From the IMG/VR virus record IMGVR_UViG_3300031521_000012, positions 103,972-167,971 of that record: a DNA stretch of 64,000 nucleotides; one strand, 5' to 3'. The DNA comes from a virus. This document shows positions 858-38,884 of this stretch, in pieces. Position 1 is the stretch's first letter, and every line of letters begins with the position of its first letter. A program made the position numbers and the translations under genes. The notes under the pieces are model-generated. The model ran no database searches and was not told the origin of the DNA. It saw only the letters and a program-made list of their open reading frames with translations.

Positions 858-3800
858 TTATTCTAATATTACCGATGAAATACCATCGTCATTTAATGTA
901 ACATTTAATAAATAGTCTGGTGATACTTCATGCATCTGTTCTACGATTAAAACTTTTTTCATATTTGCTTTAATGATTTGCAATATCTCAACAAATTCCT
1001 CAATACTATCATCACTTAGCTTGCCCATAACTTCGTCAAGCAAGAATATTGTTGGTTTAGCTTTTATATTTATCTGGTTTAACGAGAATTTCAACACTAC
1101 ACTTGCAAATGTTCTTTCTTTTCCAGAAGCACTAATACAATCAATTATTGCAGTAGGTCTATTGTTATAGACAAGCTTTGGTCTTAGATCGTCAGCATCA
1201 AGCCAAACTTTAAATGGCGCTGATGATAATACTCTTTCTAAAGTAAAATTGATTTTGGGTAATATATAATTACTTAGCATCTGCCTAGGTATACCATCAC
1301 GATGAACACATTTTTTATATAATTCCATAACCTTATCACGATATTCCTGTATCTCAAATTCAGCAAGCAATTCTTCGTTTTCTTTTATCTTTATCTGCTT
1401 ACCACCAATATCAGTTTTCCTAAGATAAACATCTTCTTTGAGTTCAGAATCTTCTGTTTCAAGCTGTTCCAATCTTAGCTTAGCTGCTTTAATTCCTATT
1501 TCAATGGCTTTGTTTTCTTCAATTAGCTTTATGCTATTATCATAATTATTGATTTTCGTTTGTAATGAACCGATAATCAATTCTTCATTAGAGATTTTTA
1601 ATGGAATCTGATCTAACTCATTTTGTAATTCCTTACGCTTTTCAACATCATTTTTTTCATTAGTAAGTTCACCGATCTCTCTTAAAATGTCTTCCATGGC
1701 TAAGGAATCTTTTTCAATTTGTAACCTGATAGCATCAATTGTTGCAATTTCATTAGATATGCTAGTGTCATGTACCAATTTATCAACAGTTTCCTTATCA
1801 TTAATTTTATCACCAATATCAAACATTTCATTTTCAATAGTTTCAATTTCAGCATTAATATGTACTTGATGATCTGCAGATAATAACTGCCCACATGTTG
1901 GGCAAGTCTTGCTATTTTTAAGCTCAAATATTTTATTCTTACATGCTAAACCAGCATTTTTTAATCTGAAAATATCACCATTGATTATTTCAATTTCATG
2001 TTCTTCATTGTGTATGATTTGCTCATGTGATTTAATATCTAACTTGTATTTATATTCGTTTTGTTTGTTGAGTTCCTTTTGATCAATTAACACAGTCAAT
2101 CGCTTTTCATCATATTCTTTCTTTAACGGCAATATACTTTTCAATAAAACGTCATTACGTGCCTTCAGGTCAACGATTGTTTCTTCATGAGTACTTATAT
2201 CCTCTTTAATGTCATCTACGCTTAGATTGTAGATTTCAGGGTCTATGGTGTATAATTTCTTGTTTAAGCCCTCAACATATGTTCTTCCAGTAGCAATTTT
2301 GGTTTGTATATCAATAATCTTAACTGTTTCAATCTCTACAACCTCACTATTAAGTTTAATAATTTCGCTGCGCATTTCTACGTTTTGATTAGTAACATTT
2401 TCAACACGACATGTTACCCTAGATTTACCCATAAGCTTTTTCTGATACGCTTTATAGCCTTCAAGTTTTTTATCAAAAATATCCAAACCGCTATCGAATA
2501 ATATTGAATCAATGAAAACTGCCATATCGTTTGATAATATTTTATTTAAAGTATCTGATGTTGTCATAACAATACGCATGAAATTATCATATGTACCAAT
2601 AATAGATTCAATTCTTTTTTGAGTTTTAATTCTATTATCATCCGTTAATTTATCAATTGAAGTATCATCATTCATTTCATCATCGGGTGATGTAAGCAAA
2701 TAGTAGCCAATACTGGTAGGTGCGCCATTAATGCTCCCATCTTTAGCTCTATTTATTTCAGTTTTCTTCTTGATTCCAAAATATTCTCCGTTGGCTTCGA
2801 TAATAATATATCCCTCACAACTTTTAGCATCGTTTCTATTGTTAACAAAACGAGCATCCCCATACTTCACTCTGTTCTCAGTTTCAAGTGTTTTGCCAAA
2901 TAAGACGTATGTCATCAGTTTCATAATGGTTGTTTTTCCAGCTGTATTGACTCCTGTTATTTGAAACAGTCCATCCATATCTCTCCAATCAATGTCTAAT
3001 TGTTCATATGACATGAAATTTTTGCCACCAAATTTAACAACATTCCATTCGACACTCGTATCATCAGCAGTATCAATTTCCTTTAAAATCTCTTCATCTA
3101 ATGCAATAACATCGTCAATTACCTTTTCATCAATACCTATTTTAATCAGATATTCCTTAAATATTTCATGCTGAACGGTTTGATTGGCTACATTATCTAG
3201 TGTTACGTTTTCATTTACATCAATTTTATCTGTTTCAATGAATTCATTTTTATGCGAAATGGTTGTATTCTGATATTTAGATTTTATATATTCGGCTAAC
3301 CTTCTCTCGTTATTCCTACATCTTGACGATGGCAGCGTGTTCCAAATAATTCTAATCTTCATGTACTTTGTTGGGTCTGGAATATCAAAATCCAAATCAT
3401 CAAAATCGGTATATGTTGTAATTTTTACATTTTTAAGCGAATAGTCATTTTCAACAGATATTTCTTTAGCTTTTTTAGTGCTGACATTCCATAAAAGATA
3501 ACCATGAAAATTATCATCGCCTTCATCAAATCTTTGAGCGATAAGACTACTCGAATATGCCTTGGTCTTAGCTTTATCTAAGTATTGCTGCTTATGTATA
3601 TCACCAAACATACTCATATCGCCCTTAAAATCAGTCGATTTATAGAATGCTTTGCTTTTAACTTCAATACCCGATGGCATTTTGCTGCCGTTTATTTGAT
3701 CGTGAAATAAATCAATTGCGGTATATTGACTAGATGTTTCTCTTAGCTTTTCGTATATTTTTCCTTCCTTAGTTTTCCAAGGATTATTTTTATCTTCACC

Positions 3801-4187
3801 ATGATGCCAAACCATCCATGCTACATTTTCATCATAGAAAACATCTGTCTTATCATAATAAACGACATTGGGATTATTTAATGTATCAACAATTGCCTTA
3901 ACGCTATCAACTCTATTCGATGCTTTTTTACGATAATCATGATTACCACGTGTAATACGAACAGGCGCTATCTTGCTTAGATCATTAAGTAATTTAGATG
4001 CCATTATTAATTGTTCACCCTGTAAATCAAGATTATCATGAACTAAATCGCCTACTATTACAATTCTATCTGGTTTTTCAGCAGTAAGTGATTTAATTAA
4101 ATTATCGAATACTCCATCATATTCATCATTTCTTGTGGGTATCTTTCTAATATGAACATCGGCAATCTGTGCTATATTTTCAATCAT
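858..4187 (-). CDS. Fused SbcD-SbcC (Mre11-Rad50, T4 gp47-gp46) recombination nuclease/ATPase
   Basis: Seen: residues 1 to about 360 carry the Mre11/SbcD phosphoesterase motifs in order: DVHIRK near 10, GDLVHDN near 47, RGNHDY near 80, WHHGED near 129 and GDIHK near 196. Residues from about 385 to 1109 form an SbcC/Rad50 ATPase with Walker A GVNTAGKTT near 411, long coiled coils, a zinc hook CPTC near 762, a signature-like SASGKERT segment and Walker B FLLDEVMG near 1049. In T4 and most bacteria these are two adjacent genes. One uninterrupted 1109-codon frame joins them here. Known role of the family: processing DNA ends for recombination-dependent replication and host DNA breakdown. The neighbouring sigma and primase genes fit a T4-like DNA-metabolism block. 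Confidence 0.95.
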   Translation of the reverse strand: MIENIAQIADVHIRKIPTRNDEYDGVFDNLIKSLTAEKPDRIVIVGDLVHDNLDLQGEQLIMASKLLNDLSKIAPVRITRGNHDYRKKASNRVDSVKAIVDTLNNPNVVYYDKTDVFYDENVAWMVWHHGEDKNNPWKTKEGKIYEKLRETSSQYTAIDLFHDQINGSKMPSGIEVKSKAFYKSTDFKGDMSMFGDIHKQQYLDKAKTKAYSSSLIAQRFDEGDDNFHGYLLWNVSTKKAKEISVENDYSLKNVKITTYTDFDDLDFDIPDPTKYMKIRIIWNTLPSSRCRNNERRLAEYIKSKYQNTTISHKNEFIETDKIDVNENVTLDNVANQTVQHEIFKEYLIKIGIDEKVIDDVIALDEEILKEIDTADDTSVEWNVVKFGGKNFMSYEQLDIDWRDMDGLFQITGVNTAGKTTIMKLMTYVLFGKTLETENRVKYGDARFVNNRNDAKSCEGYIIIEANGEYFGIKKKTEINRAKDGSINGAPTSIGYYLLTSPDDEMNDDTSIDKLTDDNRIKTQKRIESIIGTYDNFMRIVMTTSDTLNKILSNDMAVFIDSILFDSGLDIFDKKLEGYKAYQKKLMGKSRVTCRVENVTNQNVEMRSEIIKLNSEVVEIETVKIIDIQTKIATGRTYVEGLNKKLYTIDPEIYNLSVDDIKEDISTHEETIVDLKARNDVLLKSILPLKKEYDEKRLTVLIDQKELNKQNEYKYKLDIKSHEQIIHNEEHEIEIINGDIFRLKNAGLACKNKIFELKNSKTCPTCGQLLSADHQVHINAEIETIENEMFDIGDKINDKETVDKLVHDTSISNEIATIDAIRLQIEKDSLAMEDILREIGELTNEKNDVEKRKELQNELDQIPLKISNEELIIGSLQTKINNYDNSIKLIEENKAIEIGIKAAKLRLEQLETEDSELKEDVYLRKTDIGGKQIKIKENEELLAEFEIQEYRDKVMELYKKCVHRDGIPRQMLSNYILPKINFTLERVLSSAPFKVWLDADDLRPKLVYNNRPTAIIDCISASGKERTFASVVLKFSLNQINIKAKPTIFLLDEVMGKLSDDSIEEFVEILQIIKANMKKVLIVEQMHEVSPDYLLNVTLNDDGISSVILE

Positions 4188-26928: not shown

Positions 26929-27744
26929 TTATTTTAGTCCTTGAATTAATGTATCGCCATATTTAATACCATCAAAACCCATCTTCATTGCTTTTTGTGC
27001 ATTTGCCTTGGTCTTTATGTTAATAGCTGGCATGTTATATTTTTCACCTAGTTTTTCAAAATTTACATTCGGAAACCATATTTTAGCTAGAATGTCAACT
27101 GGCTGTTGACTATCTTTATATGCAATCCCCAATGAATTTGTATCCAAAAGATTATCAAATTCGATTTCATATTTACTATATCCCTCAATAGGATTAATAG
27201 TAAAAAAGTTACCAACAACGGAATTATTCTTAATTGGGTCTCGTCTATATGCTATGATCTTTTGCTGATTAAGACTTGGGGTTTCAGTTTGAATGTTAAA
27301 ATTATCTTCATCCAACGAAGATAGAAATTGATCTTCATCATCACCATAATAATTTATAGCATCTTGCATTTCAACTTCTTCAATACCTTGTGAACCTTCA
27401 TATTCGTAAATATCCTGTATCTTATTTAAAATACGACAAGCATCATTTTTATTTAACATGACCATAACTGCTTTTAGATTAACACCATCCAATATAGCTT
27501 TAATTTGGCGATGATGTCCATCAATTACATTAAAATCCATATCTATATAGATTGGTTTAAGATCGTTTATTTCTGCTTTTCCTACTTCATCAGCAAATAC
27601 TATTTGTTGAGATACGTTTAATTTATTTGGGTCGGCATCCACTATTTTATAGCCAATACCCTCATCATCCAGTTTCTGTAACACAATACTGTATGGTAAA
27701 TTCAACTGAGGCATGAAGTAAGGTTTGTAGCGAGCATCAATCAT
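26929..27744 (-). CDS. ParB-like domain protein with a possible ART-like C-terminus (271 aa)
   Basis: Seen: MDFNVIDGHHRQIKAILDGVNLKAVMV near residues 68-95 matches the ParB/Srx-type core, which has a DGxHR motif. The second half contains QKIIAYRRDPIKNNSVVGNFFTINPIEGYSKYEIEF and a C-terminal KAMKMGFDGIKYGDTL. Patterns of this sort (Arg, then a G-FFT strand, then GFDGI) are common in phage ADP-ribosyltransferase-like and related polyvalent domains, but the match is weak. The ParB fold in phages often occurs in nuclease or CTP-dependent switch proteins. The gene follows the HAD-ART gene and has an exact promoter-like motif 10 nt upstream. Confidence 0.6.
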   Translation of the reverse strand: MIDARYKPYFMPQLNLPYSIVLQKLDDEGIGYKIVDADPNKLNVSQQIVFADEVGKAEINDLKPIYIDMDFNVIDGHHRQIKAILDGVNLKAVMVMLNKNDACRILNKIQDIYEYEGSQGIEEVEMQDAINYYGDDEDQFLSSLDEDNFNIQTETPSLNQQKIIAYRRDPIKNNSVVGNFFTINPIEGYSKYEIEFDNLLDTNSLGIAYKDSQQPVDILAKIWFPNVNFEKLGEKYNMPAINIKTKANAQKAMKMGFDGIKYGDTLIQGLK

Positions 27745-27772: not shown

Positions 27773-28675
27773 TTATTTTTTTATTTCCTTATCAATAAAA
27801 TCCCAATTGCTTAATGGAATCCACCCATATTTAGTGTTTATTTCTAATTCGCTAACTGGAATCTCTTTAGTTGTTATCCATTCATAGCCATCTTTCTTAT
27901 TGAACTTTGGTGATTGCTGAAAATCATCGGTTAATTTAGTTCTTAATACAACTGCTTTATTATCTCCACCTTTCATGTTAGCATAGTAATTAGCAACGTT
28001 AAGATCACTTGTAAACGAAGTAAATTGTTCATTGGCAGCATCGGGTCTCATTCTACCTTCACGCTGTATATGATACCCTGCGCCATCAGAAGTGCCATGA
28101 TAAATATAATTACCAGCAACAAAATCTTTAATTACTTCATCGATAATACCACCTACATTAAATTCAGACTCAACTAATGCAAAGTTGCCATCATGTGCCT
28201 CATATATATTAAATGTAATATGTTGAGGAAGCAAATGTTTAATACCTTGGTATGATTCAATATCAGTATCTCTATCATCAAAAACACTGATCTCAACTAA
28301 ATCTGGAAATTTAGCAACATATTGTAATATTTTCTCACCCTTAGTTAATTCGCTATGCTTCATATCGAGTTTATCAACATGAATGTTGTTTATATCTAAA
28401 ATTGCTTGAACTTCAGGGCGTAATTTCTCCATTCTTGATGTTAATACAATTACATAGGTATCAGGAGTATTCTTTTCCTTTAAATATTGTTGATACATAC
28501 TAGGAAATGGCTTAATATCAAAGATATTTAAGTCTAAACTTTCTTTCCTGCCCCACCAGCCAATATATGGAAAAGGTCTATTATAGTAATTAGCCCATGC
28601 AATTTTTCCCTCTTCAGGCAATGCTGTGGGGAATAACGTAGCATCTAAATCAAACGCCACCAGTCTTTTAATCAT
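27773..28675 (-). CDS. HAD phosphatase (RNA-repair 'Swiss army knife' type) fused to an ADP-ribosyltransferase-like domain
   Basis: Seen: residues 1-165 carry HAD motifs VAFDLDATLFPT (nucleophile DxDxT), VIVLTSRMEK and SVFDDRDTD, plus the insert PFPYIGWWGRKESLD typical, as I recall it, of HAD_SAK-type domains linked with RNA repair. Residues about 185-300 start NYIYHGTSDGAGYHIQREG, continue FTSFTSDLNVANYYANM and end WITTKEIPVSELEI. This is the layout of ART/PARP-like folds (H/R-G-T strand, STS-like strand, late Glu). Fusion of the two suggests a phosphatase and a transferase or hydrolase acting on the same RNA or protein end. Substrate is unknown. Confidence 0.75.
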   Translation of the reverse strand: MIKRLVAFDLDATLFPTALPEEGKIAWANYYNRPFPYIGWWGRKESLDLNIFDIKPFPSMYQQYLKEKNTPDTYVIVLTSRMEKLRPEVQAILDINNIHVDKLDMKHSELTKGEKILQYVAKFPDLVEISVFDDRDTDIESYQGIKHLLPQHITFNIYEAHDGNFALVESEFNVGGIIDEVIKDFVAGNYIYHGTSDGAGYHIQREGRMRPDAANEQFTSFTSDLNVANYYANMKGGDNKAVVLRTKLTDDFQQSPKFNKKDGYEWITTKEIPVSELEINTKYGWIPLSNWDFIDKEIKK

Positions 28676-28744: not shown

Positions 28745-29752
28745 ATGAAAAATTATGATATAAAGCAAATGGCTGAATACTATTTTAACAGTAAACTTAC
28801 AAACAGAGAAATTGCAAAAATTTTTAACATATCGCCATGTACTGTTACTTATCAACTAAAAAGAAATGGATATACTCTTATTGATAAAGTACAATATGGA
28901 AACAATAGAAAACATAGTATAGATTTGAATTTTTTCAAAACAATCAATTCGTCCAATAAGGCATATATTTTGGGCTTAATATTATCTGATGGCTATGTAG
29001 ATGACTATACCAAATTAACGTTTACATCTAAAGATATTGAATTGGTTAAAATTTTTAAAAAAGAATTAAAATCAGAGCATAAATTGGCAACATATGATGT
29101 GTTCGATAAAAGAACCAATAAAACATATACAAGACATTCAATACAAATAGCATCAAAAGAAATTGTTTCTGATTTAAATAAACTTGGTGTATTTTCGAAA
29201 AAATCATTCACATGTACAATGCCTGAAATACCTGAAGCATATTTTTGGCATTTTATTAGAGGACTTTTCGATGGGGACGGTTCTATAAGCAAAGGAAGTA
29301 TGCGTAAAGAAGGCGCATTACAGTTTTCGATTATAGGTTCCGAAAACATGTTGAGGGTGATAAAAAACAAATTTAAATTATATGGGTTATCAAACACTAA
29401 ATTTGAAATTACTAAATATCATTCAGAGGATGACCATATCGCAAAGTTACATTATTATTCATATAATGACTTGTTTTTTCTAAATGAAAAAATATATGAA
29501 AATTCTGAGGGTCTAAGACTGACAAGAAAATATGATGTTTTTCAAACACTAAAAGAATATAGATTAGGGACTTACGATAGAACACCATCTTTACGCCAAA
29601 TTAGCATGTATGATTTAGAAAATAATTTACTTAAGATGTATAAAAACATACATGAAGCTTGTGATGAAAATAATTTATCTTATAAAACAATACATAGAGT
29701 TGCAATGGGTGAAAGAAATCACACACACTATCTGGTTTTTAGATATGTTTAA
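28745..29752 (+). CDS. LAGLIDADG homing endonuclease with HTH (335 aa), only plus-strand gene
   Basis: Seen: an N-terminal HTH (LTNREIAKIFNISPCTVTYQLKRNGY), LAGLIDADG motif 1 (AYILGLILSDGYV, near residue 78), motif 2 (FIRGLFDGDGSI, near 170), and a C-terminal ISMYDLENNLLKMYKNIHEACDENNLSYKTIHRVAMGERN, a NUMOD-type DNA-binding module. Both catalytic Asp residues are present. It is inserted opposite to all other genes between the HAD-ART gene and the PD-(D/E)XK-like gene, with its own promoter-like motif. Known behaviour: cleaves an uninterrupted allele to spread itself. Absence from related phages would confirm mobility. Confidence 0.9.
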   Translation: MKNYDIKQMAEYYFNSKLTNREIAKIFNISPCTVTYQLKRNGYTLIDKVQYGNNRKHSIDLNFFKTINSSNKAYILGLILSDGYVDDYTKLTFTSKDIELVKIFKKELKSEHKLATYDVFDKRTNKTYTRHSIQIASKEIVSDLNKLGVFSKKSFTCTMPEIPEAYFWHFIRGLFDGDGSISKGSMRKEGALQFSIIGSENMLRVIKNKFKLYGLSNTKFEITKYHSEDDHIAKLHYYSYNDLFFLNEKIYENSEGLRLTRKYDVFQTLKEYRLGTYDRTPSLRQISMYDLENNLLKMYKNIHEACDENNLSYKTIHRVAMGERNHTHYLVFRYV

Positions 29753-29766
29753 TAACAATCATATTT

Positions 29767-30291
29767 TTATTTATAAAATGTTTTATATATTAATTTATCT
29801 ATATCAGCAAAAGGAACTTTAACTGTTATATCATTTCTTCCCCAATTTTTTCTACAATACCTTCGATAATTACCTAAACCAGCTTTTTCATAATATATCG
29901 TAAATCCTTCATCGTCAATATCAGACTTTCTAACGTTTTCTTCAACTAATGTTACTAAATCGGTTCTCATTACAAGATCAAAACGATTATCTCTTTCAAA
30001 TGCAATAGCTTTTAATTCACTGACATAAAGCCAACCAATGTCGCCATGAACGTTTTTAAGTTCAACCCATGTCTTGCCATCAGCTGTATCATGCTTAATA
30101 CCTTTCACATCGATGCTTTCATAAACACCATCTTTCGCTATCATTACATCCCAATGCTCATGCATATTCTCATATCGACTCGACTTCTCACATGTATAGC
30201 CTTCGGCAATTGCTAACTTCATGAACAAATCTTCACTAATATCACCCTTAGCTAAATCATCACTAATTTTACTTCTCAATTGATCATCCAT
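29767..30291 (-). CDS. PD-(D/E)XK-like nuclease (174 aa)
   Basis: Seen: DLFMKLAIAEGYTCEKSSRYENMHEHWDVMIAKDGVYESIDVKGIKHDTADGKTWVELKNVHGDIGWLY. The D-V-M-I strand, then ESIDVKG and WVELKN, gives the D, D/E-x-K arrangement of PD-(D/E)XK nucleases. The C-terminus is basic and aromatic (NYRRYCRKNWGR). Start choice: the frame extends to 30357, but the ATG at 30291 is 5 nt after the stop of the upstream 126-aa gene and avoids a 61-nt overlap. Could cut DNA or RNA; the neighbours suggest RNA-repair or defence chemistry. Confidence 0.65.
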   Translation of the reverse strand: MDDQLRSKISDDLAKGDISEDLFMKLAIAEGYTCEKSSRYENMHEHWDVMIAKDGVYESIDVKGIKHDTADGKTWVELKNVHGDIGWLYVSELKAIAFERDNRFDLVMRTDLVTLVEENVRKSDIDDEGFTIYYEKAGLGNYRRYCRKNWGRNDITVKVPFADIDKLIYKTFYK

Positions 30292-30296
30292 TATAT

Positions 30297-30677
30297 TTAT
30301 CTTGTTACTTCGGTTACTACGCCTGTTAATTTCAACGGAAACTTTATTGGTTGCCAATTATCCAATTTATTAGACATGAATGGTTTACCACCTGCAAGTC
30401 TATTTACGGCTACGGTAATATGTGCTTTATTATTTTGTGTATGATACCCCTCAACACCAACAGCCATTACCATAAAATCCATAGCATAGTCAATAACTGT
30501 TAGCTGAACTTCCATCCCAATATCATTTCTATATTGGGAATTGATTTCACCCATGTTAATTGTTGAATGGTGTGCTAATAACTCCCAATCATCAGGAATC
30601 ATTGGCTTAAACACTTTGATTAATCTGTCGTGTGATTCTTGATCAAGAACCACTGCGCTATATGATATGTTATTCAT
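30297..30677 (-). CDS. 2H-like phosphoesterase / RNA-repair-like protein (126 aa)
   Basis: Seen: ISYSAVVLDQESHDRLIKVF, then WELLAHHSTINMGE with an H-x-T motif near residue 37, and NKAHITVAVNRLAGGKPFMSNKLDNWQP with a second H-x-T motif near residue 86. Two H-x-T/S motifs flanking a beta sheet are the catalytic signature of 2H phosphoesterases and ligase-like enzymes acting on 2',3'-cyclic or 2'-5' phosphates. I recall this version occurring with HAD_SAK-type domains in 'Swiss army knife' RNA-repair proteins; that pairing is recollection, not something visible here. It overlaps the upstream endonuclease gene by 8 nt. Confidence 0.65.
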   Translation of the reverse strand: MNNISYSAVVLDQESHDRLIKVFKPMIPDDWELLAHHSTINMGEINSQYRNDIGMEVQLTVIDYAMDFMVMAVGVEGYHTQNNKAHITVAVNRLAGGKPFMSNKLDNWQPIKFPLKLTGVVTEVTR

Positions 30678-31771: not shown

Positions 31772-34700
31772 TTATTTCTTTTCGTTTAAATTATTGTTAA
31801 GCGTCATATCAACATTATCATCGCCAAATTCACTATATGAAAACACTAATTTATTGCCAGTTAATGTTAGTTCATTATCAAATGTTTTCACATATTTTTT
31901 ACCTTCGCCTTTTTTCACATATGCAATCGTTATATGTGGATGATATTCATCAAATTCTGAAGTGTATGGTAATGTTTTCATTAACTTATTCAATCTTGTC
32001 AATTCTTCCGAATGTACATCAAATTTAACCACATCGAATTCGTCATTTTCAAATGTTGATATTCCTGAAATCTTAATAGATATTGGCTTTAATGACGTAT
32101 TTTTCTTAAATAATTCAAATGCCTCATTAGCCTTTACATCATTATTAAAACCATATAAAATAGTGACATGTGGCTCTGTTTCTATTCCATATCCATTGTC
32201 TTTTATGTACAAGTCATCAGATTTAATTATTGAGGTTAGCTTCTTCCATTTAGGAACATCCAAATACAACATCAAACAGCCATATTCAATATCATCACTA
32301 TTAGGCGCTTCATTCATGGTAATATTCATTTTATCATCCGAGTGTGCTTGATTTGGAAATCTCGCTCTACGAATCATTTCATTGCTGATCTTATTGGCGT
32401 ATATATTGAAAAATTTAAACTGTGAACTCTTGTTTTGAGCGATTTCTGTTAATTTTTTAACATTATTTGCTTGCTGTTCACCTCTATCCATATAATCATC
32501 ACTCGTATCTGATAGTCCAAATGCATTGTTTGATGATATTCTTCTTAATAATAAGTATTGATCTTGATGATCATCGATAAAATCATATGGCTCAATAAAT
32601 CCCAAAGCCTTAGCCATCGAATTATGATTGAAATACATATCTTCAGTCGCAACATATAAATCACCGTTTTTGTCAGCAATTGCACGCACAAACGAATTAA
32701 AGCCAGACAAAGACTTAGGATTTTTGAAGATTGGTGTCCATTCTTCTGTTCTAGTGTGCTGAACATATGCTATTGGCTTTTCAGCATTAATACTTAATGC
32801 CTTTTCTTGTGCATATTTATTATCAAACTCTTTTCCAGCATCGGGAATATTAAATGCTTTTTCAGCATATTTATCACCGATACCTTCTTGTACTGAATTA
32901 TCGCCAATAGTTGTCAATAATGCATTTTTATCATTGCTTACCTTATCAGAATAGATTTTTAATAATAATGCTTTTTGTGTATCACCAATTTGCTTACCTT
33001 TTAAGCCCATCGACATTAAATCATTACCATTTACAGCTAATTCATTAATAGTCTTAGGATATTTACCCGAAAGCAGTTCTTGCGCTGCATTTTGTACTTC
33101 AGTAGGTATTATCTTGCTTTGTAGTGATACTGGCGATATAACGTACACGTTGTGAGCAATTGATCTTGCTTTAACTGCATTATCAACTTCACCTGAACCA
33201 AATGCTTGCTCATATGCTTTAATCTCCTTATAGGTATCAATATCGCCTTTTAAATTGTTTTTAAAGAATTCTGCAGGATTCGGCATTAAACGAGTTAGTA
33301 AGTAAATGTATTCACCCATTGTATGTACATCTTCGAACGGACTTCTATCGATAGTTGATTGTTGTAAATCAGTATCGAATATCTGTTGAAATATACCAGT
33401 GTCTTTAAGTAATTGTGTACCTGTTCTTTTATTACCTTTACTCACTATTTTTTGAAATTCGATTAATATTCTTTCAGGTGGAATTTCTTTAATTCTACTT
33501 GCGTTATCGATTATTAATTGCATTGTCTCAGGCTCAATAGTAAAACCAAATCTAGAAGAAAATTGAACGCTCCTGAGCATGCGGAGGGGATCATCTGCAA
33601 ATGCTTGTGGATTAACAACACGAATTATCTTATTCTTCAAGTCTTCCTGACCACCGAATGGATCGATTATGTTACCATCAATATCTTTAGCCATTGCATT
33701 AATGGTAAAGTCCCGGCGCCTAAGATCATCCTCAATAGGTAATTCATGATCAGATGTAACATCAAATCCTTTATGACCACCCTCACCAGTTGGTTTGTCT
33801 TGTCTAGGAATAGCAATATCAATATCTTCTGATGCGCCAGCTGGTTTGAACTTTAATACGCCAAATGATTTACCAACAGCATCGACTTTACCATATTTAG
33901 ATAATATTTGCTCTAGTCTATCCATTGGAATACCTGCGATAAGAATATCTAAGTCTTTAGATTCCTTGCCAAGAAATTCATCACGCACTGATCCTCCAAC
34001 CTGTAGGATTCTTCCTCCAAGATATTGTACTTCTTCTTTAAATGGTAGGTCTTGTAAAGACATCAATTCTTTCATTTCAGTTAATTCATTTTCGTTAATA
34101 CGTGTATTTGGCTCATAAAGATAGTTCAGTTCTGGAATAAAATTAAATCTAGGATTCAATATCTTAGCCTTATCCATAAATTGTTTAAACTGAGCAATTG
34201 CATCATCATAACTAGGATAACGTTTCCATGTAAAAGTAGGCAATGCTTCTCTTTCAATATCAGGTGTTGCCATAATATTAGATTCACCAAGTAATATAAC
34301 ATTTGTACTTAAATATCTTTGAACTGTTATAAATCCTGCTACTAACGGTGGTACTTGATTCCAGTTATAATAATCCAATTTGACAGCACCAACTCTATTT
34401 AGTATTCTTAACATATCATCATGAATTCCAAAGCTCTCACGTTCAGCATAAAAATTTCCCTCGGCATCAATAATTCCTCTTATATCATATCCGACACTAT
34501 CAGGTGTTTTAGGGTTTTTTATTATTTCATTTCCAATCTTATCTCTATATAATACGTTTTCGTTATCAATAAGGTTACGGTTTGCACGATATTTTTTATC
34601 AAATTCTTTAAATTCAGGCTCAACACCTTGCTTTTCAGCATACTTATCACCAATACCTTCACTAAGTCCTTTCCAATCTTTTATTGCGTGAATTTTTATG

Positions 34701-37700
34701 TGTTCATTGATGAAATTTATACCATGGTTTTTTGCTTTAGCTTTATCTAGAAATTGCTTAAATATTACTAATGCATCGTCAAACTTAGTAATACTATTCC
34801 AATCAGGTTGAGGACTTACTCTGGACTTAAAATCATCAGGAATTAAAGCTAAGTTAGATTCACCGACAAATATGTCATTTGTTCTTTCATAACGTTGTAC
34901 AGTAACAAAATTAGTTTCTAATGGCGTTTTAATATTCCATTCTTGAGCATCATTTAATAAATGCAATTCATCTAATATTCTAAGTAATGTAATATGTATA
35001 TATCTTGGATAACTTTCGATATATAAATTACCTTCTCTGTCAATAACACCCCTAACATTTCCAAAAATATTTTTCAATGAAGACGGATTTCTTATTATAA
35101 AATATTCTTCATCATCTTCTCTAAATACAATATTTTCTTGATCTTGTTGAATCAAATGATTTGTGTATTTTTTATTAAATTCTTTGAATTCTGGCTCAAC
35201 CCCTTGCTTTTCAGCATATTTATCACCAACTCCTTCTTCTATTTCTTCTTCTCTGATGCCATATAGGAAACCAGCTAGCTTATTATTATCATTTGGTAAT
35301 CTGAATGTATAGTGATTGCCTTTAACATCAAGATATATTTCCGATTGTCTTGAGCTTAAATAATTTATGAAAACAGTCTTTATTATTTCATTTATTCTAC
35401 CTGCCTTATTACCCTGTAGCATTAGATTTGGCTTTATTCCAACTAGTTGATAATCTAGCCTAATTAAACCATCATTAAATGCTTTATCATATAACTTATC
35501 AATATTATCATCAGTATATTCGAATTGTTCACCTGACAAATATACATCAACTAGATAATCTATATGTGATTGAACTTGAATAAATCTATTATCGGGTAAT
35601 ATCCAACCCAATATTCTTCTTTGTGTTAGCATATTTTTTAATGCGAATAAACCAATTCCAACATATTCATCAGTATTAACTTCTTCATCGATTTCATCAG
35701 GATGTGGTTCGACAGGCAATTTGCTTATATACTCTTTGTATATATATTTATTTATTGATTCATCACTATAGCCCAATAGTCTACCTATCTCATAAGCTTC
35801 TTCAGGTGTCTGATCATCAGCATAACCACCATGTTGCATCATTATAGTATATAGCTTCTCTGCATTTGCTTTAGCTTCAGGTGTATTTCGATAAACTACA
35901 TATGTTTCAGCATCATGATCTGTTTGCTCAACAGGGATTCCTTGAAGTCCGTTCTCAATTGCGATATTCATTAATTTGTCACGTAATGCTGGAAAATTGT
36001 TAAATGATATGATTGAAACATCTTTACTTCCATCTGCCATTGCTTGTAACGCACTTTCGTCACGATATCCTACACTTGCATCAACAGTTTCATTGATAAC
36101 ATCTTCGGATATATAATCAGCTAGTTTAGCTTTACCATCTGCATTACCAGTATAAAATTTTTCATATTCTTCAGGATTCTCATATTCTAAGTATATTGTA
36201 TTGTCACCATACTGAATAAAATTTAAGAATAACTTTTTAAGTACATCAACAACTCTTTTTTTATCATAACCATTCAAAGATAATTCAGTTCTATATTGTT
36301 TAGGAGAATATTCTGATATAACCCTCACCCATCCATCTTCATAAGCTTTTTCAAATACACCATCCCTGCCGAAACTTCTGGCATATTGTGATTCAATGAA
36401 AGCTGCGTGTCTTAGCTTCGGAACTTGTATTAATTCATCTTGTGGTGATACCCATGCCCAATATGTTTGATTATATGGAATCTGTTCTTCGTTCAATGGC
36501 TTAATAATTAAATTATTGATATCACCTTGATTACATGCAGCACTTGTATTGCCTAAACCACCTAATCTACATTTCTTCTTAACATCAACTGTGCTACTGC
36601 CAGCCATTGAAGAAGTTATTCTTTCGTTAACAGTCATGTGGTATCTATCGTTACCTATTTTATCAACAATCTTGCCTTTAAAATATTTAATCAATAAATC
36701 CTTCATATATGGATTTACCACATCTAAATTTAATTTAACTTTATTACCAAACATGCTACGGTACTCTTTAAACTGATTAATACCATCTTGTGTCAATTCA
36801 CGACCAATTCCAGTACCACGATACTTTTCATCAACTACAACATCAAACGAAAATTGATTATCTGATGCATCAAATTCTGAAAAGATTGCACCTGCAACAA
36901 CACCATCTTTCAAGACAAAGCCAGTTAATTCTTTACCACGTAAAATATTAATACCACTTTTTCTTGCTATTTCAACTGATTGATTATATACATCTTCTCT
37001 GTCGTATTCAGCTTCGTCTTCATCATAATTCATATCATCACCATCTTCAGAATATCCTATTACTTCTTCATCAACAACATATTCATCTTGTGTTGCATCA
37101 TCAACATGTGAATTTTCTAAATCCTCAGTATACATTGCAGAATTGGCATTTAGATCGTTTTCGATTGATGGTGATGTATCAATTGGATTATATGAAGGAA
37201 AATCATCTGTAGTTGTCAATGAAGTAGCATCTTCATCAACTTCAATTTGCTTAGTTGTATTTGGATTGGGGTATTCCCGTTCACTGAAACCAATATCGAA
37301 AAAGCCAATAACACCGCTTTTCTTATAACCTAGATTCTCTGGTCTTATAAAATCATAGCTTTCAACACCATTTTCTTGTGCTTCTTTAGCTATGTTTAAT
37401 ACACTATCGAAAAAATATTTATCATCAGGATTCTTATCCAAATATTTTTGAACCTTATTATACCCTGCTTCGCCCAAGTAATTAGCTAAAACATCTGTTA
37501 TCACATCGCTAAAATGTAAACCCAATATTTTGCTAAAAGCAAAATTCATTCGGTCTGTTAATCGTTTAAAATTACCATCTGTTTTTAATTTTTCCAATAT
37601 AATTGCAAAAAGATTTTCTTTTAACTTGTTAGATCGTGATTTAATTGCGTAAACATCATAAATATCAGCAATGTACTCCAATCTTTTACCTATAAGTTCA

Positions 37701-38884
37701 AGTGATTCATAAGCTTCACTACTATCAGTAGTAACTTTCAATACCTTACCATTTCCAATATCATATGCAGCGCCAAACATACCACCACCTAAAAATACTA
37801 GGTTATTGAAACCTAATCTCTCACCGATTTGTTTAGCAGCATCGTCAAATTCTTGTCTAGTTGGGTAGCCTTCGTTTAATATTTTTTCTTTGCTTAATGG
37901 AAATTCTTCAAGCATTAATGGGTCTCTATCGTAACGACCTTGACTAATTAAATATTCTTGTAGTTTTATTAGATTTCTATAGAATTTTTTCTTATCTTGT
38001 GTATGATTCAGTACTTCCTTAATGTTGTTTACACAATCATGGAAATTTTCGACCAAATAAGGTAAACTAGGAATTGGAATATTTGGGTAATAATCACGAT
38101 TAGAAACAAAATGAATGAATTCCTCATTGACTACTTCATCACCATCACCCACGCCATACGGTATTTGCGCCCACATACCCATTCTAATATCACTATCACC
38201 GCCAGCATCAGATAATATATCATCGTTACCATCAGCAAAGTTATATAGTTCGTACATTTGTTGACGTTTTCCATTACCGCTATAATGTGTAGCAAGTACT
38301 CCATCAGTTAATCCATAATCAGTTAATACGATTGTTGGTTGACCATCGTGTAATACTTCTCCATATAAACTAGTTCTACCTAAGTCACCAACATTCATGT
38401 TATAATCTAAAGACAACATCAGTACTCGCTGAGTAAACTCGTTTTCATCGAAAAATTCAATAAGTGCTTTGTCTTGATGCCAAGTAGCACGTTTTCCATT
38501 ATTTAACTCTATGAAAGTTTGAATATACGTCTTCATACTCCATAAATCAGGTATACCTGTTAATTGCTTAATTCTTGCTTCTGAAACTTTTCTTGCTTTT
38601 TCAACAATTAACCATGCATCGTTTTCATCATACTCAAAAACTTTTGTTACAATATCTTGAGTATTATGGTATATACCAATACTGCTTTCCACTTCATTTT
38701 GAGCAACACCTTTAGCGTTTTTAGCTAATTTAAATACTTTGCTACCGTCTATATCATAAACGATTCTACCTGAACCACTACCGATTTTAGCGAGATTTTG
38801 ATTAGAAAATTCTATTTTCTGCCTATAAGATTTGATTTCTAGAAACTTATCTAAAAAATTATTAAGGAATTCATCGTATGTCAT
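31772..38884 (-). CDS. Giant polyvalent protein: two kinase-like folds, GNAT, CCA-adding nucleotidyltransferase and 2H phosphoesterase (2370 aa)
   Basis: Seen, in order: kinase-like fold 1 (residues ~25-330; GSGSGRIVY, then VFKLAK, VLTDYGLTDG); kinase-like fold 2 (~355-545; LGGGMFGAAYDIGNGKVLKV); GNAT acetyltransferase (~640-755; DEKYRGTGIGRELTQ); two related ~110-residue modules (~795 and ~1080); a module beginning GIGDKYAEK present three times (~1216, ~1411, ~2000); a tRNA nucleotidyltransferase (~1610-1980; QVGGSVRDEFLGKESKDLDILI, RRRDFTINAMA, FADDPLRMLRSVQFSSRFGF); and a 2H phosphoesterase (~2195-2350; EPHVTILYG and HPHITIAYV). This matches the concept of polyvalent proteins, long multi-effector proteins of phages and conjugative elements often delivered into the host with DNA. 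It probably acts on tRNA ends plus host proteins. Promoter-like motif 17 nt upstream. Confidence 0.88.
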   Translation of the reverse strand: MTYDEFLNNFLDKFLEIKSYRQKIEFSNQNLAKIGSGSGRIVYDIDGSKVFKLAKNAKGVAQNEVESSIGIYHNTQDIVTKVFEYDENDAWLIVEKARKVSEARIKQLTGIPDLWSMKTYIQTFIELNNGKRATWHQDKALIEFFDENEFTQRVLMLSLDYNMNVGDLGRTSLYGEVLHDGQPTIVLTDYGLTDGVLATHYSGNGKRQQMYELYNFADGNDDILSDAGGDSDIRMGMWAQIPYGVGDGDEVVNEEFIHFVSNRDYYPNIPIPSLPYLVENFHDCVNNIKEVLNHTQDKKKFYRNLIKLQEYLISQGRYDRDPLMLEEFPLSKEKILNEGYPTRQEFDDAAKQIGERLGFNNLVFLGGGMFGAAYDIGNGKVLKVTTDSSEAYESLELIGKRLEYIADIYDVYAIKSRSNKLKENLFAIILEKLKTDGNFKRLTDRMNFAFSKILGLHFSDVITDVLANYLGEAGYNKVQKYLDKNPDDKYFFDSVLNIAKEAQENGVESYDFIRPENLGYKKSGVIGFFDIGFSEREYPNPNTTKQIEVDEDATSLTTTDDFPSYNPIDTSPSIENDLNANSAMYTEDLENSHVDDATQDEYVVDEEVIGYSEDGDDMNYDEDEAEYDREDVYNQSVEIARKSGINILRGKELTGFVLKDGVVAGAIFSEFDASDNQFSFDVVVDEKYRGTGIGRELTQDGINQFKEYRSMFGNKVKLNLDVVNPYMKDLLIKYFKGKIVDKIGNDRYHMTVNERITSSMAGSSTVDVKKKCRLGGLGNTSAACNQGDINNLIIKPLNEEQIPYNQTYWAWVSPQDELIQVPKLRHAAFIESQYARSFGRDGVFEKAYEDGWVRVISEYSPKQYRTELSLNGYDKKRVVDVLKKLFLNFIQYGDNTIYLEYENPEEYEKFYTGNADGKAKLADYISEDVINETVDASVGYRDESALQAMADGSKDVSIISFNNFPALRDKLMNIAIENGLQGIPVEQTDHDAETYVVYRNTPEAKANAEKLYTIMMQHGGYADDQTPEEAYEIGRLLGYSDESINKYIYKEYISKLPVEPHPDEIDEEVNTDEYVGIGLFALKNMLTQRRILGWILPDNRFIQVQSHIDYLVDVYLSGEQFEYTDDNIDKLYDKAFNDGLIRLDYQLVGIKPNLMLQGNKAGRINEIIKTVFINYLSSRQSEIYLDVKGNHYTFRLPNDNNKLAGFLYGIREEEIEEGVGDKYAEKQGVEPEFKEFNKKYTNHLIQQDQENIVFREDDEEYFIIRNPSSLKNIFGNVRGVIDREGNLYIESYPRYIHITLLRILDELHLLNDAQEWNIKTPLETNFVTVQRYERTNDIFVGESNLALIPDDFKSRVSPQPDWNSITKFDDALVIFKQFLDKAKAKNHGINFINEHIKIHAIKDWKGLSEGIGDKYAEKQGVEPEFKEFDKKYRANRNLIDNENVLYRDKIGNEIIKNPKTPDSVGYDIRGIIDAEGNFYAERESFGIHDDMLRILNRVGAVKLDYYNWNQVPPLVAGFITVQRYLSTNVILLGESNIMATPDIEREALPTFTWKRYPSYDDAIAQFKQFMDKAKILNPRFNFIPELNYLYEPNTRINENELTEMKELMSLQDLPFKEEVQYLGGRILQVGGSVRDEFLGKESKDLDILIAGIPMDRLEQILSKYGKVDAVGKSFGVLKFKPAGASEDIDIAIPRQDKPTGEGGHKGFDVTSDHELPIEDDLRRRDFTINAMAKDIDGNIIDPFGGQEDLKNKIIRVVNPQAFADDPLRMLRSVQFSSRFGFTIEPETMQLIIDNASRIKEIPPERILIEFQKIVSKGNKRTGTQLLKDTGIFQQIFDTDLQQSTIDRSPFEDVHTMGEYIYLLTRLMPNPAEFFKNNLKGDIDTYKEIKAYEQAFGSGEVDNAVKARSIAHNVYVISPVSLQSKIIPTEVQNAAQELLSGKYPKTINELAVNGNDLMSMGLKGKQIGDTQKALLLKIYSDKVSNDKNALLTTIGDNSVQEGIGDKYAEKAFNIPDAGKEFDNKYAQEKALSINAEKPIAYVQHTRTEEWTPIFKNPKSLSGFNSFVRAIADKNGDLYVATEDMYFNHNSMAKALGFIEPYDFIDDHQDQYLLLRRISSNNAFGLSDTSDDYMDRGEQQANNVKKLTEIAQNKSSQFKFFNIYANKISNEMIRRARFPNQAHSDDKMNITMNEAPNSDDIEYGCLMLYLDVPKWKKLTSIIKSDDLYIKDNGYGIETEPHVTILYGFNNDVKANEAFELFKKNTSLKPISIKISGISTFENDEFDVVKFDVHSEELTRLNKLMKTLPYTSEFDEYHPHITIAYVKKGEGKKYVKTFDNELTLTGNKLVFSYSEFGDDNVDMTLNNNLNEKK
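32360..32890 (-). repeat. Polyvalent-protein module, third GIGDKYAEK copy
   Basis: Encodes residues ~2000-2175 of the 2370-aa protein. Begins GIGDKYAEKAFNIP, then EFDNKYAQEK and a FVRAIADKNGDLYVATED strand. Diverged from copies 1 and 2, which share EKQGVEPEFKEF. Confidence 0.65.
34090..34665 (-). repeat. Polyvalent-protein module, second GIGDKYAEK copy
   Basis: Encodes residues ~1407-1598. Begins GIGDKYAEKQGVEPEFKEF; contains DIRGIIDAEGNFYAERE and FITVQRYLSTNVILLGESN, closely matching copy 1. Confidence 0.75.
34680..35240 (-). repeat. Polyvalent-protein module, first GIGDKYAEK copy
   Basis: Encodes residues ~1215-1402. Begins GIGDKYAEKQGVEPEFKEF; contains NVRGVIDREGNLYIES and FVTVQRYERTNDIFVGESN, aligned with copy 2 over nearly the whole module. 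Confidence 0.75.

What the first reader, a model, noticed from the sequence alone, without database searches (positions are those of the whole stretch)
27773..28675. HAD phosphatase fused to an ADP-ribosyltransferase-like domain
The N-terminal half has all HAD motifs and a WWGR insert; the C-terminal half has HGTS, FTSFTSD and a late Glu matching an ART fold. I do not know this fusion from T4-like phages, whose ARTs (Alt, ModA, ModB) are separate. It might remove and transfer groups on RNA or protein ends.
Basis: partly seen in the sequence, partly recalled or inferred. Interest (0 to 1): 0.75.

Follow-up and report, generated by a model that had tools for sequence, protein, structure and literature searches.

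The report
Phage RNA-repair phosphatase with ADP-ribosyltransferase tail
An uncultured large phage encodes a protein that joins a phosphatase of the kind used to mend broken RNA to a second, separately acquired domain with the fold of enzymes that attach ADP-ribose, a pairing not found in named phages in the collection searched and one that could link repair of host-inflicted RNA damage to chemical modification of a host target.

Summary
An intact 300-aa minus-strand ORF at 27773-28675 carries two domains joined by a low-confidence linker. The N-terminal half is a HAD phosphatase of the RNA-repair type: 36 of 38 relatives match Pfam HAD_SAK_1, and one distant relative sits in an operon with a polynucleotide kinase-2H fusion and an RNA ligase. 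The C-terminal half has the ADP-ribosyltransferase (ART) fold: top structural matches are the NAD lobe of Tpt1/KptA, Arr and other ARTs. Candidate active-site residues are H193, S220 and E265. It is not a KptA: the RNA lobe is absent, KptA's invariant NAD-lobe Arg is replaced, and KptA's Val is acidic here. Nine other IMG/VR contigs carry the fusion (one with an in-frame stop). Most relatives are the HAD alone, at the same syntenic site. The ART also occurs alone, with ParB, and in a polyvalent protein. Its presence scatters over the HAD tree (8 changes, at least 5 forced), and HAD and ART histories disagree, so the ART looks like a mobile effector module. Most likely: HAD heals RNA 3' ends; ART ADP-ribosylates an unknown target. 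New variant of a known kind (polyvalent-type domain shuffling), of moderate interest.

The parts
27773..28675 (-). HAD-ART fusion ORF, 300 aa, ATG start
   Evidence: ORF and translation; nine other contigs with the same fusion
28172..28675 (-). HAD phosphatase domain, aa 1-168 (HAD_SAK_1 / Pnkp-phosphatase type); motifs D9, D11, T79, K112, D134; GWWGRxES insert aa 39-46
   Evidence: PF10307 in 36 of 38 relatives, best 5.3e-19; phrog_415 polynucleotide kinase in 34 of 38; Foldseek Lem4 HAD and Pnkp1 of the Pnkp1/Rnl/Hen1 complex; motif conservation
28115..28171 (-). linker aa 169-187 (IIDEVIKDF; IIKEEIQNF in relatives), where HAD-only relatives end
   Evidence: pLDDT below 50 at 170-187; ends of HAD-only relatives
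27776..28114 (-). ART-fold domain, aa 188-300
   Evidence: model pLDDT 86.6, pTM 0.81; Foldseek PDB: Tpt1/KptA, Arr, CC0527; BFVD: phage ParB-like proteins first; weak Pfam ART-PolyVal and PTS_2-RNA
28097..28099 (-). H193 of HGT (strand 1), predicted to hold the NAD adenosine ribose as CthTpt1 His101 does
   Evidence: alignment with KptA; role in Tpt1 from PMC6333775
28016..28018 (-). S220 of SFTS (strand 2), second triad position; Tyr in L102 and L103, His in KptA
27881..27883 (-). E265 of EWIT, third triad position; Asp in L102 and L103, hydrophobic (mostly Val) in KptA
30297..30677 (-). 2H phosphoesterase (tRNA ligase CPD-like), syntenic with the HAD gene
   Evidence: weak PF08302 E=0.0013, PF08302 E=9.6e-6 in the L001 counterpart; synteny
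29767..30357 (-). 196-aa neighbour of unknown family, looks nuclease-like by eye (untested)
   Evidence: no family match above threshold; homologues beside the HAD in several loci
26929..27744 (-). ParB-like neighbour, 271 aa, directly downstream of the target gene
   Evidence: ParB-like by eye, no Pfam match, phrog_2859 E=1.8e-4 without function; conserved synteny
31772..38884 (-). 2370-aa polyvalent-type protein with GNAT, CCA/poly(A) nucleotidyltransferase and C-terminal 2H/Acb1-like domains
   Evidence: PF01743 1.3e-21, PF12627 8.9e-16, PF13563 5.8e-9, PF23474 2e-6

Best explanation
The protein is a phage conflict protein built by domain shuffling. The conserved half is a HAD_SAK_1 phosphatase that most likely removes terminal 3' (or 2') phosphates from RNA broken by host nucleases. 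It would act after a 2H enzyme opens 2',3'-cyclic ends and before nucleotidyltransferase and ligase steps. The C-terminal half is a separately acquired NAD+-dependent mono-ADP-ribosyltransferase of the polyvalent-protein type with an H-S-E active site. It most likely transfers ADP-ribose to a host macromolecule, possibly positioned by the HAD domain near damaged RNA or the translation apparatus. Shown by computation: both folds, motif conservation, recurrent and optional fusion, and RNA-repair gene context of the HAD. Inferred: both activities, their order, and every substrate.
For: HAD: PF10307 in 36 of 38 relatives; phrog_415 polynucleotide kinase in 34 of 38; structural matches to Pnkp1 of the Pnkp1/Rnl/Hen1 RNA-repair complex; distant relative L074 in an operon with a PNK(AAA_33)-CPD fusion, CYTH, calcineurin-like phosphoesterase and a T4-type RNA ligase; own genome has an RNA-ligase-like gene and CCA-type and 2H domains next door; 2H next to the HAD across related contigs. 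ART: fold; HGT plus late acidic residue conserved; relatives of the domain alone, fused to ParB, and in a polyvalent protein. Mobility: 8 label changes on the HAD tree, at least 5 forced; incongruent HAD and ART identities and silent divergence.
Against: No assay. The window's own HAD is below the HAD_SAK_1 cut-off alone (18.2 against 25.6 bits), and hhalign to T4 PseT is weak (14.7%). The strongest HAD structural match is Lem4, a Legionella effector HAD domain, so a protein substrate is possible. Foldseek E-values for the ART are modest (about 2e-3). Ser in the second position is unusual for ARTs whose first residue is His. No clear polynucleotide kinase was found in the record, which may be a fragment.
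Confidence: 0.6

Rival explanations
1. The ART half is a KptA/Tpt1-type 2'-phosphotransferase, so the protein is a bifunctional RNA end-healer: HAD removes 3' phosphates and the ART removes 2' phosphates with NAD+.
For: Tpt1/KptA are the best solved-structure matches; weak phrog_5470 and PTS_2-RNA hits; hhalign to E. coli KptA aligns the NAD lobe, 59.8%; RNA-repair context.
Against: The RNA lobe with three of the four essential residues (Arg18, His19, Arg68 in CthTpt1, PMC6333775) is absent; the fourth Arg (invariant in KptA, R125 of E. coli) is E216 here; KptA's usual Val (V171 of E. coli) is the acidic E265. ART-only relatives looked at are not beside recognisable RNA-repair genes.
Confidence: 0.12
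2. The ART adds ADP-ribose directly to RNA (terminal phosphate, 2'-OH or base), and the HAD prepares or reverses the end, giving RNA capping or tagging in one protein.
For: Fusion to an RNA-end phosphatase; structural nearness to Tpt1, which reacts with RNA phosphate.
Against: The fusion is optional and the two domains have moved independently; the ART occurs without the HAD outside RNA-repair context.
Confidence: 0.15
3. The ART domain is catalytically dead and serves as an ADP-ribose, NAD or RNA binding module.
For: Ser instead of the usual Tyr at position two.
Against: H193 and E265 are invariant among close relatives and the domain is under purifying selection, more conserved than the HAD (71% against 56% mean identity).
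Confidence: 0.1
4. The HAD acts on a non-RNA substrate: a phosphoprotein, or ADP-ribose phosphate made by the fused ART.
For: Lem4 and Ceg4 effector HAD domains are among the best structural matches; some relatives hit the APP1 catalytic domain.
Against: Most relatives lack the ART, so ADP-ribose phosphate cannot be the general substrate; family and operon context point to RNA.
Confidence: 0.15

Closest known systems
HAD_SAK_1 (PF10307), HAD domain of 'Swiss Army Knife' RNA-repair proteins; also the Pnkp HAD phosphatase
   Same: All HAD catalytic motifs, same fold, RNA-repair gene neighbours in relatives; relatives exceed the family cut-off
   Different: Extended GWWGRxES insert; the window's sequence alone is below the cut-off; C-terminal ART not known to me in this family
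ART-PolyVal (PF18760), ART domains of phage polyvalent proteins (Iyer et al. 2017, PMC5512222)
   Same: ART fold, HGT first motif, shuffled next to ParB, GNAT and kinase-like domains in phages; distant relatives have H-Y-D as described for that clade
   Different: H-S-E instead of H-Y-D; profile matches are weak (best 0.017-0.03, below cut-off); fused to an RNA-repair HAD
Tpt1/KptA RNA 2'-phosphotransferase
   Same: NAD lobe fold, HGT motif, overall register of the lobe
   Different: No RNA lobe, tetrad residues absent, acidic residue where KptA has mostly Val
T4 Alt, ModA, ModB
   Same: Phage-encoded ARTs
   Different: R-S-E clade (PMC5512222) with Arg in strand 1; the window's ART has His there and resembles other ART clades more
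Arr rifampicin ADP-ribosyltransferase
   Same: Small stand-alone ART fold, among the best structural matches (2hw2, 9iaf)
   Different: Rmsd around 10 A over the full alignment; no sequence match

Membership tests
HAD_SAK_1 / RNA-repair HAD phosphatases | Profile match above the curated cut-off | tested here: inconclusive
   Window sequence 18.2 bits against 25.6; relative L074 at 33-35% identity scores 57.4 bits, above the cut-off; 36 of 38 members match at E<=0.01
HAD_SAK_1 / RNA-repair HAD phosphatases | HAD motifs I-IV (DxDxT, T/S, K, D) | tested here: met
HAD_SAK_1 / RNA-repair HAD phosphatases | Association with RNA ligase, PNK, 2H or nucleotidyltransferase genes | tested here: met
HAD_SAK_1 / RNA-repair HAD phosphatases | 3'-phosphatase activity on RNA | not testable with these tools
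   needs an assay
ART superfamily | ART fold | tested here: met
   confident model; the top solved-structure matches are ARTs (Tpt1/KptA, Arr) and further ARTs follow
ART superfamily | Catalytic triad positions occupied around one pocket | tested here: inconclusive
   H193, S220 and E265 align with KptA H-H-V and with H-Y-D of L102 and L103; distances not measurable here
ART-PolyVal (PF18760) | Profile match above cut-off | tested here: not met
   best E 0.017-0.03, 16 bits against 31.2
ART-PolyVal (PF18760) | H-Y-D active site | tested here: not met
   H-S-E in the window and close relatives; H-Y-D only in distant L102 and L103
KptA/Tpt1 (PF01885) | Arg-His-Arg-Arg tetrad including an N-terminal RNA lobe | tested here: not met
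   lobe absent; fourth Arg is E216; no PF01885 match in the genome
T4 Alt/ModA/ModB (R-S-E clade) | Arg in strand 1 | tested here: not met
   His193 in HGT
Polyvalent proteins | Shuffled conflict domains in one polypeptide | tested here: met
   ART found alone, with ParB, with HAD, with HAD plus ParB, and in a 1655-aa protein; neighbouring 2370-aa multidomain protein
Polyvalent proteins | Packaged in the virion and injected | not testable with these tools
   needs virion proteomics

The most novel reading that the evidence does not exclude
One polypeptide couples dephosphorylation of broken RNA ends to NAD+-dependent ADP-ribosylation of those ends or of the nuclease or ribosome bound to them, a repair-or-tag switch not known in phages.
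Probability: 0.12. Interest if true: 0.8.

Novelty: new variant of a known kind. Interest (0 to 1): 0.47.

Why it matters
It ties together two arms of phage counter-defence that are usually described apart: RNA repair (2H, HAD, nucleotidyltransferase, ligase) and ADP-ribosylation of host molecules. The tblastn search of the ART half found no match among 50,697 deposited phage records, and full-length relatives were found only in uncultured contigs, so this is an uncharacterised ART group with an unusual H-S-E site that can be expressed as a 113-aa domain. The alternative states (HAD alone, ART alone, fused), two of them at a fixed locus, give natural controls for testing whether fusion redirects either activity.

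Tried and rejected
KptA membership was tested by alignment with E. coli KptA and five phage KptAs and rejected on the tetrad and the missing RNA lobe. Direct profile comparison with T4 PseT was weak and is not used as evidence. Profile searches of the PDB by sequence gave nothing useful for either half. hhalign of the ART family against another polyvalent ART of the same genome was weak, 4.7%, although an unrelated control gave 0.1%. A scan of IMG/VR with E. coli KptA found no relative. RtcB and KptA were not found in the record, and the only polynucleotide kinase-like hit was marginal (0.009). No tRNAs in the window. One genome scan for the ART found a single distant match in an archaeal MAG contig with a polyvalent protein, possibly a binned phage contig. 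A motif idea, that the IIxEEIQxF linker is a delivery or cleavage tag, did not show up elsewhere in the window in a convincing way and stays a lead only.

Full report
What is there. The finding is an intact ORF on the minus strand, 28675 to 27773, 300 aa. The window is the last 64 kb of a 168-kb virus record, in which the protein occurs once.

N-terminal half. D9, D11, T79, K112 and D134 are the HAD motifs and are kept in 62 or 63 of 63 distinct relatives. A scan of IMG/VR with the HAD alignment gave 113 relatives, of which 80 were fetched. The GWWGR element was in one of the two search patterns, so its apparent conservation is partly ascertainment. On its own the window's HAD scores below the HAD_SAK_1 cut-off, but 36 of 38 relatives match that family at E<=0.01, the best at 5.3e-19, and 34 of 38 match a polynucleotide kinase PHROG. 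The full-length model matches the HAD domain of Lem4 and Pnkp1 of the Pnkp1/Rnl/Hen1 RNA-repair complex. A distant relative in L074 stands in an operon with a kinase-CPD fusion, a CYTH protein, a calcineurin-like phosphoesterase and a T4-type RNA ligase, all by Pfam. In the window the neighbours include a 2H protein and a 2370-aa protein with CCA/poly(A) nucleotidyltransferase, GNAT and 2H/Acb1-like domains. Elsewhere in the record an RNA-ligase-like gene is interrupted by a LAGLIDADG intein; its ligase match is below the family cut-off. I therefore infer that the HAD is an RNA end-healing phosphatase.

C-terminal half. Modelled alone with eight sequences it gives a confident model (mean pLDDT 86.6, pTM 0.81). 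Its best solved-structure matches are Tpt1/KptA (1wfx, 8tfi and others), Arr, and CC0527, followed by other ARTs. Among predicted viral structures the best are ParB-like phage proteins. E-values are modest but the matches agree with each other, with weak ART-PolyVal and PTS_2-RNA profile hits, and with a profile alignment to E. coli KptA. Aligned with KptA, HGT is shared; KptA's invariant Arg (R125) is E216, its His (H129) is S220, and its V171 is E265. In CthTpt1 the His and Thr of HGT hold the adenosine ribose of NAD, and the essential tetrad lies mostly in the RNA lobe (PMC6333775), which is missing here. More distant relatives of the domain carry Tyr and Asp at the second and third positions, the H-Y-D arrangement described for polyvalent-protein ARTs (PMC5512222). 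The window's group is thus an H-S-E variant. Whether the three residues line one pocket could not be measured.

The fusion. Nine other contigs have it; L099 has an in-frame stop inside the ART. Most relatives are the HAD alone; the close ones end at the linker. Both forms occupy the same place: nucleotidyltransferase-containing protein, 2H, HAD with or without ART, ParB-like, 109-aa protein, glycosyltransferase. One relative (L032) has a third, ParB-like segment (by eye) after the ART, and L094 has ART plus a ParB-like part without HAD. On a tree of 39 HADs the ART label needs 8 changes, at least 5 of them forced by well-supported branches, about as many as for shuffled labels. Identities disagree between the halves: L042 and L046 share 72% in the HAD but 63% in the ART, while L032 and L033 share 50% and 80%. 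Silent-site divergence for L022 against L033 is also lower in the ART (0.39 against 0.60), which selection on protein sequence does not explain. Both halves are under purifying selection. The ART is therefore a mobile module that is useful when present, not an obligatory partner.

How it probably works. Host nucleases leave 2',3'-cyclic ends; 2H enzymes open them; the HAD removes the remaining phosphate; nucleotidyltransferase and ligase restore the RNA. This order follows the general account of phage RNA repair (PMC7824862) and is inferred for this phage. The ART would use NAD+ to modify a host target. ART-only relatives looked at are beside tail, glycosyltransferase or other ART-like genes rather than RNA-repair genes (named by eye), which favours a general effector over an RNA-repair enzyme. 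Direct action on RNA remains possible.

Comparison. Polyvalent proteins with ARTs, 2H, GNAT and kinase-like domains are known (PMC5512222), as are stand-alone Swiss-Army-Knife HADs and KptA in jumbo phages (PMC7824862). I found no description of a HAD-ART fusion in the held papers, though the key review of RNA-repair systems (NAR 2016) was not held, so priority is not certain. The tblastn search found the HAD half only in four uncultured megaphage records and the ART half in none of the deposited phages.

Verdict. Observation confirmed, architecture supported, joint function open. A new variant of a known kind, of moderate interest.

Noticed in passing
window 31862-32176 (minus): The C-terminal 2H domain of the 2370-aa protein scores just above the cut-off for the anti-CBASS protein Acb1 (28 against 27 bits); a 2H protein beside the HAD in L076 also does. 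It may degrade cyclic nucleotide signals.
   Followed up: partly
L104 (G000:C1 near 70.4 kb): An RNA-ligase-like gene is interrupted by an intein with a LAGLIDADG endonuclease.
   Followed up: partly
L105 1276-2463 (minus): A 395-aa protein of the same genome carries an ART-PolyVal domain above cut-off and, by eye, a second ART-like domain before it.
   Followed up: partly
window 26929-27744 (minus): The ParB-like neighbour seems by eye to end in another ART-like domain; no profile match.
   Followed up: no
L094 2839-4837, L074 3935, L076 3953, L100 3956: Unrelated proteins begin with a similar tag, MKxLIRKLLRE or like it, reminiscent from memory of T4 capsid-targeting sequences cleaved at (L/I)xE; could mark packaged proteins.
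   Followed up: no
window 31772-38884: Repeated segments around EGIGDKYAEKQGVEPEFKEF inside the 2370-aa protein suggest internal duplications or processing sites.
   Followed up: no
window 28745-29752 (plus): An opposite-strand ORF that looks by eye like a LAGLIDADG homing endonuclease lies between the 196-aa gene and the target gene; related ORFs occur at nearby positions in L033 and L035.
   Followed up: partly
L103: A contig binned as a Diapherotrites archaeon encodes a 1655-aa protein with several ART-like domains, possibly a binned virus.
   Followed up: no
window 858-4187 (minus): A 1109-aa protein matches metallo-phosphoesterase and SbcC-like families in one reading frame, a possible SbcD-SbcC fusion.
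   Followed up: no
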